A stretch of DNA of 13,918 nucleotides from the NCBI GenBank assembly GCA_021163155.1, contig JAGGXI010000046.1, positions 1 through 13,918 on the forward strand, written 5' to 3'. How positions within the stretch are numbered: position 1 is the stretch's first letter; each line of letters starts with the position of its first letter. Source of the stretch: Candidatus Aerophobota bacterium (GTDB lineage: Bacteria; Aerophobota; Aerophobia; Aerophobales; JAGGXI01). Made by a program: the position numbers and the translations under genes. Shown one piece after another: positions 1,926-13,413 of the stretch. Below the pieces are notes generated by a model. The model worked only from the letters and a program-made list of their open reading frames with translations, was not told the DNA's origin and ran no database searches.

Positions 1926-2606
1926 ATGAGTAAATTGATAGCTGTTGTTGACGATGAACCTGATATTGTGGAACTTATAACTCACCACTTAAAAAAAGAA
2001 GGATTCAGAACCAAAGACTTTTACGATGGCGAAAGCTTGCTCAACTTTGTTAAAATTACCCTCCCTGAGCTTATAATTCTGGATTTAATGCTCCCAGGGA
2101 TAGATGGTTTGGAAATCTGTCGAATACTTAAGAGAAACGAAAAAACATCTTTTATCCCTGTTGTAATGCTTACAGCTAAGGGGACCGAGACTGACATAGT
2201 TGTTGGCCTAGAACTTGGAGCCGATGATTATATAGTAAAACCCTTCAGCCCGAGGGAACTTGTAGCTCGTGTGAAGACTGTATTAAGAAGAGCAGAACCA
2301 AAAAAAGAAAAGACGAAGTCAATTAAATTAGACGACTTATTGATAGATTTAACCAGATATGAAGCAAGAGTAAATAACAAAAAGATTGACCTTACTACTA
2401 CGGAGTTTAAAATCTTGGTTCTTCTTGCCGAAAGACCTGGATGGGTTCTCACAAGAAATCAAATTCTTAAGGACCTATGGGAAGACGAAAAAATTGTCCT
2501 GGATAGAACTATTGATGTGCACATTAAAAACTTAAGAGAAAAATTAGGGGAAGTAGGCAAATTAATTAAAACTATCCGAGGAATTGGGTATAAAATAGAG
2601 GAGTGA
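1926..2606 (+). CDS. phoP: OmpR/PhoB-family response regulator, phosphate regulon activator
   Basis: Two-domain transcription factor of 226 residues. The receiver domain (~1-120) has the acidic pair Asp9-Asp10, phosphoacceptor Asp53 (LDLMLPG), Thr83 (MLTAK) and Lys105 (VKPF). The winged-helix effector domain (~130-226) shows the LTTTEFKILVLLAERPGWVLTR region and the recognition segment DRTIDVHIKNLREKLG, ending in RGIGYKIEE. An RBS AAGGAGA precedes the ATG. The gene overlaps or abuts the kinase gene, and the same locus holds pstSCAB-phoU, so it is most likely the phosphate regulator (PhoB in proteobacteria, PhoP in Firmicutes). Its probable targets are the 11-bp periodic repeats upstream of the phosphoesterase, pstS and pstC. 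The family is certain; the phosphate role is a strong inference from context. Confidence 0.92.
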   Translation: MSKLIAVVDDEPDIVELITHHLKKEGFRTKDFYDGESLLNFVKITLPELIILDLMLPGIDGLEICRILKRNEKTSFIPVVMLTAKGTETDIVVGLELGADDYIVKPFSPRELVARVKTVLRRAEPKKEKTKSIKLDDLLIDLTRYEARVNNKKIDLTTTEFKILVLLAERPGWVLTRNQILKDLWEDEKIVLDRTIDVHIKNLREKLGEVGKLIKTIRGIGYKIEE

Positions 2607-2608
2607 AG

Positions 2609-4348
2609 ATGGCTAAATGGGGAATAGTGTGGAAACAGTTCTTTTATTATCTTTTAATTATTCTTTTAACAATTCCCCCTCTTACTTTTTTTGTCTCCAG
2701 GGAAATAAAAAGGCATTATATTAGTATAATAGAGATTAATCTCAAACATCAAGCTGCATTAACTGAAGAGTTTGTTGAGGGTCTTTTACCTTACGAAAAA
2801 ACAAGAGAAATTGATGAGCTTGCCAAGAGAATAGGAAAACAGACAGATACCAGAATTACAGTCATTGCACCGAATGGGAAGATCTTAGGGGATTCCAAAG
2901 AGGACCCCACAAAAATGGAAAATCATCTGGGGAGACCCGAGGTTGAACAAGCCATGAGGGTGGGAATTGGAAAGAGCATCCGATATAGCACTACTTTAAA
3001 AGAGGAAATGCTATATATAGCACTTCCTGTAAAAGAGGATGGCAGAACTATAGGAGTTATTAGAACCAGTCTCCCTCTTGGTCAAATAAGAGCACTTGTA
3101 TGGGGTGTAAATAGCAAAATCATCTACTTTGCCTTTATATTAACAATCTTTGCCTTTATATTATCCCTCATCTCAATAAAGGCGGCCACAAAACCCATTA
3201 AGGAAATGGCCCTTGCGGCTAAGAAAATAGCTAAAGGTAATTTCAACGTCAGAATATCCACAAAGGCTAAGGATGAAATAGGAGAGCTCTCCTCTGCTCT
3301 CAATCAAATGGCTCAGGAAATTAAAAGATTATTTACTGCCCTTGGCATGGAAAAAGAGGAGCTTCAAAAAACCCTTTCGACAATGGTTGAGGGAGTAGTT
3401 GTATTGGACTCCCAGAAAAGGGTTGTCCTTGCTAACAAAAGTTTTAAAAATATGTGCGGTCTTCCTTGGGAGTCCATCATTGGAAAAGCCTATTGGGAAA
3501 TTTTGAGAAATATAGAGTTTAAAGAATTAGTAGATAAGGTTTTTAAAACTAATAGACCAGAAACTTCCGAAATTCAACATCAAAATAAAGTTTATCTGGG
3601 AAATGGGACCCCGTTTTCCAAAACAAAGGAAAAGAGAATAGTCATCGTCTTACATAACATCACTAAAATTAAACAATTAGAAAAGGTAAAAGCAGATTTT
3701 GTTGCCAACGTCTCTCATGAATTAAGAACCCCGCTTACTGCTATTAAGGGTTTCGTAGAAACATTGGAAGAAGAAGCATCCGAAAAAGAGCAACGTTTCT
3801 TAAAGATTATTAGGAAGCATACAGACCGCCTGATCAACCTCATTTCTGACTTACTCTTGCTTTCCAAACTGGAAGATAGAGAAAAAAGGATAGAAATAGA
3901 GGAGGTAGATCTAAAGAAACTTATTTTTAATGTTTCAAAAATTTTTGAAGAAAAAATAAAAGAGAAAAATCTGAAGTTAGAGCTTATCGCCCCTCAAAAT
4001 CTTCCTTTAGTAAAGGTAGATTCATTCCTCATGGAACAACTATTTATAAATCTCATAGATAATGCAGTAAAATATACAAAAGAGGGAAAAATAAAAATAG
4101 AAATTATCCCCATAAATCATAGAGTAAAAATTAAAGTCTGTGATACGGGGATAGGAATACCAAAAGAACACCTTTCAAGGATATTTGAGCGCTTCTATGT
4201 GGTAGATAAAACCCGTTCAAGAGAGCTTGGAGGGACAGGCTTAGGCCTTTCTATAGTAAAACATATTGTTCTTCTTCATAATGGAGAAATATCTGTTGAC
4301 AGTCAGGTAGGCAAGGGAACCACTTTTACTATCCTCCTTCCCGTTTAA
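2609..4348 (+). CDS. phoR: PhoR-type membrane sensor histidine kinase
   Basis: A 579-residue sensor kinase paired with the upstream regulator. A first membrane helix (~residues 9-29) is followed by a ~135-residue extracytoplasmic domain with a PAS/Cache-like core (RITVIAPNGKILGDS). A second helix follows (~170-190), then HAMP (~190-240), a PAS domain (~255-345, MVEGVVVLDSQKRVVLANKS) and the dimerisation domain with phosphoacceptor His370 in NVSHELRTPLTAIKGF. The catalytic domain has the N box (LIDNAVKYT), G1 (DTGIGIP), F box (FERFY) and G2 (GGTGLGLS). The large external domain resembles Bacillus-type PhoR more than the short E. coli form. The ATG at 2609 is preferred: AGGAG ends 5 nt upstream. 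A GTG at 2603 that overlaps the regulator's stop is possible but leaves no room for an RBS. Confidence 0.92.
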   Translation: MAKWGIVWKQFFYYLLIILLTIPPLTFFVSREIKRHYISIIEINLKHQAALTEEFVEGLLPYEKTREIDELAKRIGKQTDTRITVIAPNGKILGDSKEDPTKMENHLGRPEVEQAMRVGIGKSIRYSTTLKEEMLYIALPVKEDGRTIGVIRTSLPLGQIRALVWGVNSKIIYFAFILTIFAFILSLISIKAATKPIKEMALAAKKIAKGNFNVRISTKAKDEIGELSSALNQMAQEIKRLFTALGMEKEELQKTLSTMVEGVVVLDSQKRVVLANKSFKNMCGLPWESIIGKAYWEILRNIEFKELVDKVFKTNRPETSEIQHQNKVYLGNGTPFSKTKEKRIVIVLHNITKIKQLEKVKADFVANVSHELRTPLTAIKGFVETLEEEASEKEQRFLKIIRKHTDRLINLISDLLLLSKLEDREKRIEIEEVDLKKLIFNVSKIFEEKIKEKNLKLELIAPQNLPLVKVDSFLMEQLFINLIDNAVKYTKEGKIKIEIIPINHRVKIKVCDTGIGIPKEHLSRIFERFYVVDKTRSRELGGTGLGLSIVKHIVLLHNGEISVDSQVGKGTTFTILLPV

Positions 4349-5221: not shown

Positions 5222-5758
5222 TTAATAATTTTTGTCCAATATTTCAAAATATGCTTTTGGATGTGCACATACTGGGCATATCTCTGGTGCTTCAGTTCCT
5301 TCATGAATATGTCCGCAGTTCCTGCATCTCCAGTATACTCTACCCTCTTTTTTGAAAACCGTGCCGTCTTCAAGATTTTTTAGTAATTTCTTGTAACGTT
5401 CTTCGTGTTCTTTTTCTATCCTGGCTATACCTTCAAACATTACTGCGATTTCCTCAAACCCTTCGTCTCGAGCTTCTTTTGCCATTCGAGGATACATATC
5501 TATCCATTCAAAATTTTCTCCCTTTGCAGCAGCTTCCAGATTATCAATTGTACTTCCTATTCCATTCAATTTTTTAAAATGGAGTTTTGCATGCTCTTTT
5601 TCGTTTCCGGCAGTTTCAAGAAATATTGAGGCTATTTGTTCATACCCTTCTTTTTTTGCCACTGATGCAAAATAGGTATATTTGTTTCTTGCTTGGGACT
5701 CACCTGCAAATGCTTCTAATAAATTTTTTTCTGTTTTTGTTCCTTTTAAATTTGCCAT
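5222..5758 (-). CDS. rbr: Rubrerythrin
   Basis: A cytoplasmic non-haem iron peroxidase of anaerobes that reduces hydrogen peroxide with electrons passed through its rubredoxin-like domain; 178 residues, within family range. The N-terminal ferritin-like four-helix domain carries diiron ligands Glu20 ([10 protein letters not shown]), Glu53 and His56 ([13 protein letters not shown]), an acidic helix [13 protein letters not shown] near 93-105, and Glu115/His118 (IEKEHEERY). The C-terminal rubredoxin-like domain has two Cys pairs, CRNC (145, 148) and CPVC (161, 164), for a single iron. AAGGAGAT precedes the ATG. It lies 13 bases downstream of the hydroxylamine reductase remnant in the same orientation and is followed by an attC-like site. 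All ligands appear intact, so it is probably functional, although the original promoter may have been lost with the truncated gene upstream. Confidence 0.95.
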
Positions 5759-6397: not shown

Positions 6398-6451
6398 TTA
6401 ACGAGAAATTAATGTTTTCTTTATACAAAACTAACAATTGTAATCTATAAT
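6398..6451 (+). promoter_or_regulatory. Pho-box promoter of the metallophosphoesterase gene
   Basis: Four hexamers start exactly 11 bp apart: TTAACG (6398), TTAATG (6409), TTTATA (6420) and CTAACA (6431). A 9-bp gap and a perfect -10 box TATAAT (6446-6451) follow. There is no separate -35 box; the repeats take its place, as in activator-dependent Pho promoters. The layout is identical base for base in spacing to the elements upstream of pstS and pstC. Confidence 0.8.
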
Positions 6452-6478
6452 AATCTAAAAACTTAAAAGGAGATTTTT

Positions 6479-7210
6479 ATGATAATCGTTCACTTATCGG
6501 ATCTTCACTTCGGGATGCCAGAATACGTAGAAAAATTAGGCGAGAACGTCTCAAAAAAAATTGAACAGATAAAACCGGAGCTCCTTATAATTACAGGAGA
6601 TATAACTGATTGTGGCTACCTTGAGGATTACGAGGAGGCAAAAAAATTTATAGATTTATTGAAAAGTGAAAAAAAGCTCATTGTTCCGGGAAATCACGAT
6701 GCCAGAAATGCAGGCTATCTTTTATTTGAGGAATTCTTTAAAACGAGATATCCTGTGATGAAAATAGGAAACCTTAAGATAGTGGGAGTGGATTCAAGCG
6801 AGCCGGACATAGACGACGGTCACATAGGAAGGTCAACTTACAACTTTGTGAGAAGAGAGTTGAAGGGGGTTCCCCTAAAGATGGTGGTTCTTCATCATCA
6901 CTTAATTCCCGTTCCCAATACGGGAAGAGAGAGAAATATACCTGTGGATGCCGGAGATTTTCTAAAGCTTATCGGTGAGTTACATGTTAATCTTGTCTTG
7001 TGGGGGCACAAACACGTTCCCTGGTTTTGGAAGCTAAATGGAACCTTAATGGTAAATGCGGGGACGGCAACGACAAGGAGAACTAAAGCAAGAATAGAAC
7101 CATCATTCAATGTGATAAATCTCAATGAAACAAGCACCAAGATTATCATCAAACAAATTTCTTCCAAGACACTTAAGGAGAAGATAATCTATAAAGGTAT
7201 GCTTAAATAA
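6479..7210 (+). CDS. Calcineurin-like metallophosphoesterase (CpdA-like phosphodiesterase family)
   Basis: A 243-residue cytoplasmic phosphoesterase with the full set of dinuclear-metal motifs: D-x-H (Asp8, His10 in LSDLHFG), GD (Gly40-Asp41 in ITGDITD), GNHD (71-74), a His cluster LHHH (138-141) and GHxH (Gly176-His179 in WGHKHVP). No signal peptide or membrane segment is visible, so it acts inside the cell. Relatives cleave phosphodiesters such as cyclic nucleotides, but the substrate cannot be read from sequence. AAAAGGAGA precedes the ATG. Its promoter carries the same four-repeat Pho element as pstS and pstC, so it is very probably induced by phosphate starvation and may scavenge intracellular phosphate or tune a nucleotide signal. 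It lies 152 bases upstream of pstS, which has its own promoter. Confidence 0.9.
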   Translation: MIIVHLSDLHFGMPEYVEKLGENVSKKIEQIKPELLIITGDITDCGYLEDYEEAKKFIDLLKSEKKLIVPGNHDARNAGYLLFEEFFKTRYPVMKIGNLKIVGVDSSEPDIDDGHIGRSTYNFVRRELKGVPLKMVVLHHHLIPVPNTGRERNIPVDAGDFLKLIGELHVNLVLWGHKHVPWFWKLNGTLMVNAGTATTRRTKARIEPSFNVINLNETSTKIIIKQISSKTLKEKIIYKGMLK

Positions 7211-7246
7211 ACGCCTTTCCTGTAAGAAAATTGTGATTATGGAAAC

Positions 7247-7300
7247 TTAACAGAGGATTAACATTTTCCTTATACATATTTAACAATAATATTGTAGAGT
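7247..7300 (+). promoter_or_regulatory. Pho-box promoter of pstS
   Basis: Hexamers at 11-bp spacing: TTAACA (7247), TTAACA (7258), CTTATA (7269) and TTAACA (7280). A 9-bp gap follows, then a -10-like TAGAGT (7295-7300). The geometry is the same as at the metallophosphoesterase and pstC. The -10 box is weaker (two mismatches), so this promoter may depend most on the activator. Confidence 0.8.
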
Positions 7301-7315
7301 ATTACAAAATAAAAA

Positions 7316-7348
7316 GGACGAAGTGAAATAAAGAAATTCTCTACGTCC
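7316..7348 (+). promoter_or_regulatory. Imperfect hairpin in the pstS leader
   Basis: GGACG (7316-7320) pairs with CGTCC (7344-7348). The stem continues with AG/CT and GAA/TTC, interrupted by two single mismatches, around a loop rich in A. It ends four bases before the strong ribosome binding site AAGGAGG, so it could influence pstS mRNA stability or translation. Function is unproven. Confidence 0.4.
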
Positions 7349-7362
7349 AAAAAGGAGGAAAG

Positions 7363-8208
7363 ATGAAGACAAGAAGAATCATAGGGTTAATAGCCTTTAT
7401 GATTATGGTAATGACTACTATCTGTGGGTGGTCATGGGCAAAAGGAGAAAATCGTCTCTCCTTGCAAGGTTCAACTACTGTTCTTCCTATAGCTCAAGCA
7501 GCGGCTGAGGAATATATGGATCTTGTGGATATGGATCTTTTACCAGAAGCAGACATCACTGTTAGAGGTGGAGGCTCTGGAGTAGGCATTGCTGCACTCC
7601 TTGATGGCACCATAGATATCGCTAATGCTTCAAGGCCGATGAAGCCCAAAGAAATTGAAAAGGCAAAGGTAAAAGGGATTAAGCCATTTGCTACGGTAAT
7701 AGCCAAGGATGGGATTGCCGTAATTGTTTATCCATCCAATTCAGTAGCTGAATTGAGCATGAGAGACCTTAAGGCAATTTACACAGGTCAAATAAACAAT
7801 TGGAGTGAGTTAGGAGGAGAGGCAAAGCCTATGGTGGTTATCTCAAGAGATACTGCTTCGGGTACTTTTGAGACTTTTAATAAGCTTGCCCTCAAAGGCG
7901 CAAAAGTAAGAAAGGATGCTCTTATGCTCGCCTCAAACCAAGGAGTTGCCACTACAGTATCTAAGACACCGGGAGCAATAGGATATATAGGTTTAGGCTA
8001 TTTATCCCCAAAAGTAAAGGCACTAAAGATTGATGGAGTAGAGCCCTCACAGAAGACAGTGGTCAGCGGAGAATATAAGCTCTCCCGTCCACTCTTTATG
8101 TATACTAATGGGAAGCCAAAGGGATTGGCAAAGAAATTTATAGATTTTGTGCTTTCCTTATCTGGCCAGAGGATCGTTGAGGATATAGGCTTTGTTCCTT
8201 TAAGATAA
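7363..8208 (+). CDS. pstS: Phosphate ABC transporter, periplasmic phosphate-binding protein PstS
   Basis: Captures phosphate outside the inner membrane and delivers it to PstC-PstA. The 281-residue precursor has a Sec signal peptide: basic MKTRR, hydrophobic core to ~22, and a likely signal peptidase I cut after SWA26. Cys21 is not in a lipobox, so it is a soluble periplasmic protein rather than a lipoprotein. Ligand-binding loops of the family are present: GSTTVLP (36-42), GGGSGVG (69-75), SRP (90-92) and SRDTASGTFE (161-170), the last supplying the Arg, Asp and Ser groups that bind phosphate. A strong RBS (AAGGAGG) precedes the ATG. A Pho-box promoter drives the gene and a terminator hairpin follows, so PstS can be made in excess over the membrane components. 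Confidence 0.96.
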   Translation: MKTRRIIGLIAFMIMVMTTICGWSWAKGENRLSLQGSTTVLPIAQAAAEEYMDLVDMDLLPEADITVRGGGSGVGIAALLDGTIDIANASRPMKPKEIEKAKVKGIKPFATVIAKDGIAVIVYPSNSVAELSMRDLKAIYTGQINNWSELGGEAKPMVVISRDTASGTFETFNKLALKGAKVRKDALMLASNQGVATTVSKTPGAIGYIGLGYLSPKVKALKIDGVEPSQKTVVSGEYKLSRPLFMYTNGKPKGLAKKFIDFVLSLSGQRIVEDIGFVPLR

Positions 8209-8217
8209 ATTTCACCT

Positions 8218-8256
8218 GGCGAGAGCAGCCTGGCTTCTCTCGCCTCTCCCTTTTTC
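8218..8256 (+). terminator. Intrinsic terminator after pstS
   Basis: GGCGAGAG (8218-8225) pairs perfectly with CTCTCGCC (8237-8244) around an 11-nt loop, followed after a short gap by T5 (8251-8255). It separates pstS from the pstC promoter and would end or attenuate the pstS transcript. Confidence 0.65.
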
Positions 8257-8268
8257 CTACCCGTAAAA

Positions 8269-8322
8269 TTAACACATTCTTAACAATTTCTTTATATTTC
8301 CTTAATAGTCAAGTTCTATAAT
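8269..8322 (+). promoter_or_regulatory. Pho-box promoter of pstCAB-phoU
   Basis: Hexamers at 11-bp spacing: TTAACA (8269), TTAACA (8280), TTTATA (8291) and TTAATA (8302). A 9-bp gap and a perfect -10 box TATAAT (8317-8322) follow. The pstC ATG begins six bases after the -10 box, placing the expected transcription start at or next to the initiation codon. Confidence 0.82.
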
Positions 8323-8328
8323 AAAATT

Positions 8329-9186
8329 ATGAAAAAGAATTTCATTGAAAAATTGCTTCCCATCTTTGCTTCGCTATCCTGTCTATTTCTTTTTGGTATA
8401 ATCCTAACTTTATTTATTGAGGGATTGCCGATTTTTAAAACCGTGGGATTTTTTGAGTTTATCTTTAGTAAATCCTGGCATCCCACTTATGAGCCTCCAG
8501 AATTTGGAATATTGCCCCTTATTCTAAGCTCTCTTTGGGTCACCGTTTTTGCTCTCGTTATCGCCATTCCTCTCAGCCTCGGGTCCGCAATATACATATC
8601 TGAACTTGCCTCCCCAAGAATGAAAGAGATTTTAAAACCGATAATAGAGCTTCTGGCAGGAATACCCTCTGTAGTTTATGGTTTCTTCGGTATGGTCTTT
8701 CTCGCTCCCCTGGTTCAGAAAATATTTAATCTACCCACCGGATTAACCTGTTTCACTGCCTCCGTAATTTTAGGTATTATGGTAGTTCCCACTATTACCA
8801 GTCTCGCCGAGGATGCCATTTCTGCTATTTCAAAGGATACGAGAGAGGCTTCTTTTGCCCTGGGAGCGACAAAGTGGGAAACAATTACAAGAGCAGTTGT
8901 TCCTGCTGCTTCCTCAGGTATTGTTACAGCAATTATTCTGGGAATGGGAAGAGCAGCAGGAGAAACAATGACTGTTTTAATGGTGGCTGGCGGAGCAACT
9001 ATGATACCTAAATCTCTTTTTCAGCCTGTCCGCCCAATGACGGCGACAATTGCCGCTGAAATGGGAGAGGCGCCAATGGGCAGTGCTCACTATCACGCCC
9101 TTTTTGCTATTGCCCTGGTTCTATTTTTCCTAACTTTAATTCTCAATCTTTTAGTTGATTGGCTATCTTCAAGGAGAAAAAGATGA
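8329..9186 (+). CDS. pstC: Phosphate ABC transporter permease PstC
   Basis: One of the two inner-membrane permeases that form the phosphate channel. The 285-residue protein has about six hydrophobic segments (first at ~10-31, last at ~258-277). The cytoplasmic EAA loop that contacts PstB is [20 protein letters not shown] (173-192), and the conserved GRAAGETMTVLMVAGG stretch (207-222) follows. A periplasmic segment with SWHPTYEPPEFGILP after the first helix distinguishes PstC from PstA. There is no Shine-Dalgarno: the ATG lies six bases after the TATAAT -10 box, so translation may start on a leaderless mRNA. No later in-frame start with a ribosome site would preserve the first helix. Its stop overlaps the pstA start (ATGA). 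Confidence 0.95.
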   Translation: MKKNFIEKLLPIFASLSCLFLFGIILTLFIEGLPIFKTVGFFEFIFSKSWHPTYEPPEFGILPLILSSLWVTVFALVIAIPLSLGSAIYISELASPRMKEILKPIIELLAGIPSVVYGFFGMVFLAPLVQKIFNLPTGLTCFTASVILGIMVVPTITSLAEDAISAISKDTREASFALGATKWETITRAVVPAASSGIVTAIILGMGRAAGETMTVLMVAGGATMIPKSLFQPVRPMTATIAAEMGEAPMGSAHYHALFAIALVLFFLTLILNLLVDWLSSRRKR

Positions 9187-11848: not shown

Positions 11849-12853
11849 ACAAAAAATTCTTTCAAGAGAAACGCATTGAAACCTATATCAATCTGTGTTC
11901 ATCAAATGTCCAGTGATGATTTGAATCTTCTAAAGAGAATTGTAGAGCAGCACCAAAAAAGCAACCACAATACTATCTCCAGAGAATTATGTAAAGTATT
12001 TAAATGATATCAGCCAAACGGCAAACTCAAAGAAATGAGTTGCCGGGTAGCCTTATTAAAACTTCATCGACAAGGTTTTATAAAACTTCCGGAGCCTACC
12101 CATAAAAATAGCAATGGTAAAAACTGCATTGAACACACTCTTAAGGGTAATCCCGGTAAAATCATTAACCAACCTTTAAAGGCACTTTTGCCCATTGGAA
12201 TATCATTAGTTAATAATTCTTTCCAATCCCAATTATGGAATGAATTGGTAGAGAGATACCACTATCTGGGTTACAAACCCCTAGCAGGCGCCCAAATCAG
12301 GTATCTATTTCGCTCTTTCTCTTACATTCTGGGAGTTATTGGTTTTAGCGCTACTGCATGTGGAGGATTGCCTCCCGAGATCAATGGATAGGCTGGTCAG
12401 AGCCTCAGCGCAAGAAAAATTTGATCTATGTAGTTAATAACGCTCGCTTCCTTGTCTTGCCCTGGATTCAATGCAAAAATTTAGCTTCTAAACTACTATC
12501 ACTAAGCATTCAACGGTTACCTCATGATTGGCTTTCACTGTATCGATATAAACCGGTATTGCTCGAGACCTTTGTAGAGCAAAACCGTTTTCGTGGCACC
12601 TGCTACCGGGCCAGCAATTGGATCGGAGTTGGCCAAACCAGAGGAACGGCAAGCTTTTTATTGCTTTATCAATCAAACCAAAACTCCACCATCTGAGGTG
12701 CCAACTTTGATAGAAGCTACCCGCATGATTGCTAAACTTGGGGATTTCCTTGGGCGTAAGCAGGATGGCCATCCAGGTTCCACTGTTATCTGGCGAGGAC
12801 TTCAACGCCTAAGTGATATTGCTTTTGTCTGTAGCCTTGCTCGAGCCCCATAA
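11849..12853 (+). pseudogene. Decayed transposase: DUF4338/DruA-like domain with an IS4/Tn5-type C-terminal tail
   Basis: The coding signal survives across three frames. It starts near FFQEKRIETYINLC (from ~11850), shifts frame near 11900 to MSSDDLNLLKRIVEQH, meets a nonsense codon TGA (12005-12007, where Trp is expected before YQPNGKLKEMSCRVALLKLH), and continues through ELVERYHYLGYKPLAGAQ to about 12355. It then shifts frame again to RIASRDQWIGWSEPQRK, VVNNARFLVLPW and PVLLETFVEQNRFRGTCYRA, which I recognise as the DUF4338 domain also found in the Druantia protein DruA. From about 12640 it changes frame once more to FYCFINQTKTPP, MIAKLGDFLGRKQDG and WRGLQRLSD, a tail typical of IS4/Tn5-type transposases. 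The whole DDE catalytic core is missing. It is non-functional; no terminal inverted repeats were found. Confidence 0.7.
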
Positions 12854-13074: not shown

Positions 13075-13110
13075 ATATTAGACTAAAATTTTATTTGACA
13101 TATATATCTT

Positions 13111-13280
13111 TTAGGTTTCTCGAGAGAGGACTAATAGGGAATCCTGTGCAAATCAGGAATGGACCCACCGCTGTAACCGGGGACGAAAGCTATAAAAAGT
13201 CACTGTTCCTATTTTTGGAACGGGAAGACATAGCGAGTAGGATGATTCGGAAGTCAGAAGACCTGCCTGAAAGACAGAAA
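13111..13280 (+). ncRNA. Cobalamin (B12) riboswitch
   Basis: The aptamer shows the conserved blocks in order: AGGTTT at the start, CTAATAGGGAATCC (13131-13144), the GTGCAAATC turn, CACCGCTGTAACCGGGGACG (13166-13185) with the B12-box-like core, GTCACTG (13199-13205), CGGGAAGAC (13221-13229), AGGATGA, and the closing GTCAGAAGACCTGCCTG (13253-13269). Together these are diagnostic of the cobalamin riboswitch family (Rfam RF00174), which binds adenosyl- or aquocobalamin and usually turns expression down when B12 is plentiful. The variants GCTGTAAC for GCAACTGT-like and GTCACTG for GCCACTG are within family variation. The open frame that runs through it is not a gene. Confidence 0.93.
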
Positions 13281-13306
13281 TCTCGCCTTAGGGGTAGTAG
13301 GTGAGA
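13281..13306 (+). promoter_or_regulatory. Hairpin between aptamer and terminator, possible part of the expression platform
   Basis: TCTCGCCT (13281-13288) pairs with AGGTGAGA (13299-13306), including one G-U pair, around a 10-base loop containing GGGG. The loop GGGG could pair with the CCCC of the terminator stem downstream, giving a possible switch between alternative folds. This is inference from complementarity only. Confidence 0.4.
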
Positions 13307-13333
13307 AGTTTATTTTGGAGATAAAACTGGGTA

Positions 13334-13368
13334 ATCCCCAATCAACTTTGTTGGTTGGGGATTTTTTT
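13334..13368 (+). terminator. Intrinsic terminator controlled by the cobalamin riboswitch
   Basis: ATCCCCAATCAAC (13334-13346) pairs with GTTGGTTGGGGAT (13350-13362), 13 bp with one G-U pair and a 3-base loop, followed immediately by T7 (13362-13368). It lies between the aptamer and the transporter ATG, so the switch probably acts by premature transcription termination. Confidence 0.85.
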
Positions 13369-13413
13369 ATGGGAATATTTTTAGCATATATTTAAGGGAA
13401 GTTGAGAACTCAA

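What the first reader, a model, noticed from the sequence alone, without database searches (positions are those of the whole stretch)
6398..8322. Three promoters share an exact 54-bp Pho element: four hexamers at 11-bp pitch, 9-bp gap, then -10
Seen directly: hexamers start at 6398/6409/6420/6431, 7247/7258/7269/7280 and 8269/8280/8291/8302, each set followed by a -10 box 9 bp later (6446, 7295, 8317). Position-specific patterns recur: repeats 1 and 2 are TTAACA-like, repeat 3 is YTTATA in all three, repeat 4 is TTAACA-like. Known: PhoB and PhoP bind direct repeats with 11-bp pitch upstream of Pho genes. Inference: this is the site for the regulator at 1926-2606, binding as two head-to-tail dimers in place of a -35 box. 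The rigid layout gives a search pattern for the whole regulon of this lineage.
Basis: partly seen in the sequence, partly recalled or inferred. Interest (0 to 1): 0.7.

Follow-up and report, generated by a model that had tools for sequence, protein, structure and literature searches.

The report
Three phosphate-starvation (Pho box) promoters
Three promoters in the phosphate-uptake gene cluster of an uncultured bacterium share a rigid four-repeat Pho box; it is the ordinary phosphate-starvation switch, but its precise layout, including an odd third repeat, recurs at phosphate genes across many bacterial phyla.

Summary
Three sets of four hexamers lie exactly where stated, at 11-bp pitch and 9 bp from a -10 box. 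Layout and repeat identities are shared, not the full 54-bp sequence. In the 1.83-Mb genome these are the only matches with up to 3 mismatches (control 0). They precede a metallophosphoesterase gene, pstS and pstCAB-phoU. The neighbouring PhoB-like regulator is the only OmpR/PhoB-type DNA-binding protein found in the genome. The layout is not lineage-specific. In 80 pst loci from many phyla the repeats occur at pitch 11 almost exclusively. A leave-one-out count gives TTAACM / TTAACA / YTTATA / TTAAYA, with the -10 usually 9 bp away. In a scan of 386 genomes all 8 hits (control 0) lay at Pho genes. E. coli pstS has the same order, including a deviant third repeat (CTTACA), but an 11-bp gap. The own-genome regulon is just these three promoters; phoB shows no such site. 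Extra finding: the pstC promoter puts the predicted start nucleotide on or 1 nt before the ATG, with no Shine-Dalgarno, in three genomes (leaderless mRNA inferred).

The parts
6398..6436 (+). Pho box 1: four hexamers at 11-bp pitch, TTAACG/TTAATG/TTTATA/CTAACA, upstream of the phosphoesterase gene
   Evidence: ortholog in G006
6446..6451 (+). -10 box TATAAT of promoter 1 (9 bp after repeat 4); +1 predicted near 6458
7247..7285 (+). Pho box 2: TTAACA/TTAACA/CTTATA/TTAACA, upstream of pstS
   Evidence: orthologs in L004 and G006
7295..7300 (+). -10 box TAGAGT of promoter 2
7316..7348 (+). pstS leader hairpin (GGACG..CGTCC) directly upstream of the Shine-Dalgarno; different stem sequences at the same place in L004 and G006
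   Evidence: z -2.4, -3.3, -4.5
8218..8257 (+). hairpin followed by a T-rich run after pstS, likely terminator of the pstS transcript; similar hairpin in L004
   Evidence: z -4.05; L004 z -4.58
8269..8307 (+). Pho box 3: TTAACA/TTAACA/TTTATA/TTAATA, upstream of pstC
   Evidence: orthologs in L004 and G006
8317..8322 (+). -10 box TATAAT of promoter 3; predicted +1 is the A of the pstC ATG (8329), no Shine-Dalgarno
1926..2606 (+). PhoB-like response regulator (receiver + winged-helix Trans_reg_C), the only Trans_reg_C protein found in the genome
2603..4348 (+). PhoR/PnpS-type sensor histidine kinase
   Evidence: NF046044 PnpS over cut-off
6479..7210 (+). calcineurin-like metallophosphoesterase, gene of promoter 1
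7363..8208 (+). pstS, phosphate-binding protein, gene of promoter 2
   Evidence: TIGR02136
8329..9186 (+). pstC, first gene of promoter 3
   Evidence: TIGR02138
9183..10031 (+). pstA
   Evidence: TIGR00974
10025..10780 (+). pstB
   Evidence: TIGR00972
10791..11453 (+). phoU
   Evidence: TIGR02135

Best explanation
These are three PhoB-dependent promoters. Under phosphate starvation the PhoR/PnpS-type kinase (2603-4348) phosphorylates the PhoB-like regulator (1926-2606). Four protomers (two head-to-tail dimers) bind the four 11-bp repeats on one face of the DNA, where a -35 element would be, and recruit sigma-70 RNA polymerase to the -10 box 9 bp downstream. This turns on three transcripts: phosphoesterase, pstS (ending at its own terminator), and pstC-pstA-pstB-phoU. 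The third repeat, YTTATA, is a distinct half-site. Shown here by computation: layout, rarity, phosphate-gene linkage, conservation, single candidate regulator. Inferred: phosphorylation, binding, dimer number, sigma recruitment. The pstC transcript is inferred to be leaderless.
For: Only three matches in the genome, all at phosphate genes, control 0. Single Trans_reg_C protein in the genome, in the same cluster as the sites. DNA-recognition helix close to that of E. coli PhoB (DRTVDVHIRRLR against DRTIDVHIKNLR). Spacing scan across 80 pst loci: 23 matches at pitch 11/22, 0-1 elsewhere. Leave-one-out repeats and 9-bp gap in 23 of 31. Scan of 386 genomes: 8 hits, control 0; the four hits outside this phylum are at pstS, at phoB, and at genes next to phoR. 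Presence/absence within the phylum. E. coli pstS has CTGTCA-CTGTCA-CTTACA-CTGTCA at the same pitch. No consensus TTGACA at the right distance from these -10 boxes, although other promoter-like sites in the window have perfect ones.
Against: No expression or binding data. The regulator scores below the curated PhoB cut-off (237.7 against 296.2 bits), and BaeR is nearly as good a match. The genome is 93% complete, so a missed regulator or site is possible. The gap to the -10 differs from E. coli (9 against 11 bp). The PhoB/site co-occurrence rests on few genomes, some with truncated contigs.
Confidence: 0.93

Rival explanations
1. Sites for a different regulator (another OmpR-family or unrelated protein) that happens to control the pst genes.
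For: The regulator is only distantly PhoB by score and resembles BaeR almost as well.
Against: It is the only Trans_reg_C protein found in the genome; sites sit in the phoBR-pst cluster, and in other phyla beside phoR, phoB or pstS.
Confidence: 0.04
2. Chance or composition: AT-rich upstream DNA with TTAA-like words.
For: The region is AT-rich and the hexamers are low in information individually.
Against: Shuffles and simulation give none, reversed-pattern controls give none, orthologous sites are conserved.
Confidence: 0.01
3. The third repeat (YTTATA) is not a regulator half-site but a relic -35 or sigma-contact element, so that only three repeats bind the regulator.
For: It differs from the other three consistently. 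TATACA 18 bp from the -10 is a weak -35 match at site 1.
Against: It keeps the 11-bp register and the YT..YA frame of the other repeats, and the sequence just after it is not conserved as a -35 would be. E. coli pstS has CTTACA at the same place.
Confidence: 0.2

Closest known systems
Bacillus subtilis PhoP box (TTAACA-like repeats; from general knowledge, primary papers not held)
   Same: Repeat sequence TT(A/T/C)ACA, about 5-bp spacers, four repeats upstream of the -10, phosphate genes
   Different: Here the third repeat is consistently YTTATA; a B. subtilis promoter was not examined here (a Paenibacillus locus was: 9-bp gap at two sites, one with TTTATT third)
Escherichia coli Pho boxes (pstS, phoA)
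   Same: 11-bp pitch direct repeats replacing the -35 (PMC4415409, PMC3616915); pstS has four repeats with a deviant third, CTTACA
   Different: CTGTCA rather than TTAACA; gap to -10 is 11 bp rather than 9
Cyanobacterial SphR Pho boxes (PMC1906773)
   Same: 8-bp repeats with 3-bp linkers (11-bp pitch), CTTAACCT-like; a few end in TTTATATT or CTTATATT
   Different: Three repeats described; only about 3 of 30 listed sites show the TTATA repeat

Membership tests
Pho box (PhoB/PhoP operator) | Direct repeats of 6-7 bp at 11-bp pitch, at least two | tested here: met
   pitch scan
Pho box (PhoB/PhoP operator) | Lies upstream of phosphate-starvation genes | tested here: met
Pho box (PhoB/PhoP operator) | Takes the place of the -35 element, about 10 bp upstream of the -10 | tested here: met
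   9 bp from hexamer end to -10, no consensus -35; E. coli is 11 bp by the same measure
Pho box (PhoB/PhoP operator) | Bound by phosphorylated PhoB/PhoP | not testable with these tools
   needs footprinting
PhoB regulator | Receiver domain plus OmpR-type winged helix, clustered with phoR and pst | tested here: met
PhoB regulator | Score above the curated TIGR02154 PhoB cut-off | tested here: not met
   237.7 against 296.2 bits, though TIGR02154 is the best hit; called PhoB-like here
Leaderless mRNA (pstC) | Start site at the ATG and no Shine-Dalgarno | tested here: inconclusive
   predicted +1 at 0 or 1 nt before the ATG and no SD in window, G006, L004; start site not mapped

The most novel reading that the evidence does not exclude
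The canonical bacterial Pho promoter is an asymmetric four-half-site element in which the third half-site (YTTATA; CTTACA in E. coli pstS) is a distinct position conserved across phyla, with its own role at the sigma-contact region, and the distance to the -10 is fixed at 9 bp outside E. coli-type boxes.
Probability: 0.35. Interest if true: 0.45.

Novelty: new member of a known kind. Interest (0 to 1): 0.33.

Why it matters
It extends a classical promoter class, with almost no change, to an uncultured phylum. It also yields a search pattern that, in a scan of 386 genomes, hit only phosphate genes. That gives a simple way to read phosphate regulation in unculturable lineages. The conserved oddity of repeat 3 and the 9- versus 11-bp gap pose a concrete structural question about how PhoB positions RNA polymerase.

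Tried and rejected
First genome pattern was mis-spaced and found nothing. Relaxing the pattern to find weaker regulon members gave extra hits no better than the reversed control (1 extra against control). Autoregulation of phoB: best match upstream has 9 mismatches, rejected. A scan of mostly proteobacterial and other divergent loci for the -10 gap found only E. coli pstS and two Paenibacillus sites, so the 9/11 difference could not be mapped further. Cyanobacterial Pho boxes as support for the third repeat: only about 3 of 30. Key structure and Bacillus papers are not in the library.

Full report
What was checked. The four hexamers and the -10 boxes are at the stated coordinates in all three promoters, at 11-bp pitch and with a 9-bp gap. 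The sites share layout and repeat identity rather than one 54-bp sequence: hexamers are 79-92% identical between the three window sites, spacers 27-60%. This is the pattern expected if the hexamers are under selection.

Chance. Shuffles of the window give no match. In the whole genome (1,832,017 bases, 119 contigs, 93% complete) only these three match at up to 3 mismatches with the -10 included, and the reversed pattern gives none. Simulated sequence of the same dinucleotide make-up gives none at up to 4 mismatches. Because the pattern came from the sites, independent sequences are the better test. In 80 loci around PstS relatives, three TTAACA anchors with repeat 3 left free gave 23 matches at pitch 11 and 22, and 0 or 1 at each of 62 other spacings. 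In 386 genomes the pattern with up to 1 mismatch gave 8 hits, control 0. Four of these are in the window's genome and its relative G006; the other four are upstream of pstS (L143), of phoB (L145), and of genes directly next to phoR that look like porins (L142, L144; the porin reading is from the sequence by eye).

Surroundings. Downstream of the sites are a calcineurin-like phosphoesterase, pstS, and pstC-pstA-pstB-phoU. phoB and phoR lie upstream at 1926-4348. The regulator is the only protein with a Trans_reg_C domain found in the genome; the same search finds the domain in 10 of 14 control genomes. Its recognition helix is close to that of E. coli PhoB. By curated score it is PhoB-like rather than a certified PhoB. 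Within the phylum (17 genomes held) G006 has an orthologous PhoB, the same gene order from phoB to phoU and the same three sites. G005, G008 and G010 have pst genes, only receiver-domain matches to PhoB, and no element near pst (G010's contig starts inside pstS). G002 has phoBR on a contig that carries no pstS, pstC, pstA or phoU match. The nearest named relative, with 80% identical PstS, is a MAG labelled Candidatus Cloacimonadota (L004).

The shape of the element. Leaving out one repeat at a time and reading it from sites chosen on the other three gives TTAACM, TTAACA, YTTATA, TTAAYA (20, 21, 30 and 27 sites). Repeat 3 is thus consistently different. The -10 is 9 bp away in 23 of 31 sites. 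E. coli MG1655 pstS reads CTGTCA-CTGTCA-CTTACA-CTGTCA at the same pitch, so it too deviates at repeat 3, but its -10 (TATTTT) is 11 bp away, as is TATAGT in phoA. Published cyanobacterial boxes show a TTATA repeat in only a few cases (PMC1906773).

How it works. By the established model, phosphorylated PhoB binds 11-bp direct repeats head to tail and takes the place of the -35 (PMC4415409; PMC3616915). E. coli PhoB recruits polymerase to pstS (PMC10294691). The window promoters lack a consensus -35 while other promoter-like sites nearby have one. Two dimers per promoter is inferred from four repeats.

Three transcripts. A hairpin with a T-rich tail follows pstS (8218-8257; z -4.05), with a similar one in L004. 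Promoter 3 then starts pstCAB-phoU. Its -10 ends six bases before the pstC ATG, so the predicted first nucleotide is the A of the ATG; in G006 and L004 it falls one base before. None has a Shine-Dalgarno sequence, whereas the phosphoesterase and pstS genes do. A leaderless pstC mRNA is inferred; start sites are not mapped.

Limits. All evidence is sequence-based. Co-occurrence counts are small. The general claim on repeat 3 and the 9-bp gap rests on loci selected for PstS similarity and on TTAACA-type anchors, and for the gap on a pattern that fixed all four repeats.

Noticed in passing
8317-8331; G006 and L004 orthologs: Predicted leaderless pstC mRNA: +1 at or 1 nt before the ATG, no Shine-Dalgarno, conserved in three genomes. 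Similar ATG-at-+1 arrangements occur in L019 (3), L046 (12412) and L038 (10146).
   Followed up: partly
7316-7348; L004 3550-3580; G006 pstS leader: Hairpin directly upstream of the pstS Shine-Dalgarno with a different stem sequence in G006 than in the window and L004; perhaps an mRNA stabiliser. No Rfam match there.
   Followed up: partly
13096-13363: Cobalamin riboswitch (114 bits) followed by a terminator-like hairpin at 13333-13363, upstream of an ABC-transporter ATPase-like ORF at 13402.
   Followed up: no
L141 541-594, minus strand (G003): A 46%-identical PhoB-like gene is followed by TTTACA-TTTACA-TTAACA-TTTACA at 11-bp pitch, then 8 bp, then TATAAT: a variant with an ordinary third repeat.
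   Followed up: no
L019 (3), L029 (5986): Pho elements upstream of genes that look, by eye, like sigma factors, in Omnitrophota and Elusimicrobia MAGs.
   Followed up: no
12035-12853: Overlapping short ORFs in different frames that look like one broken gene.
   Followed up: no
1227-1691 and 5222-5758, minus strand: A Fur-family regulator and a rubrerythrin lie in the same window; perfect TTGACA/TATAAT promoter-like sites at 1756-1729 and 6296-6267 on the minus strand.
   Followed up: no
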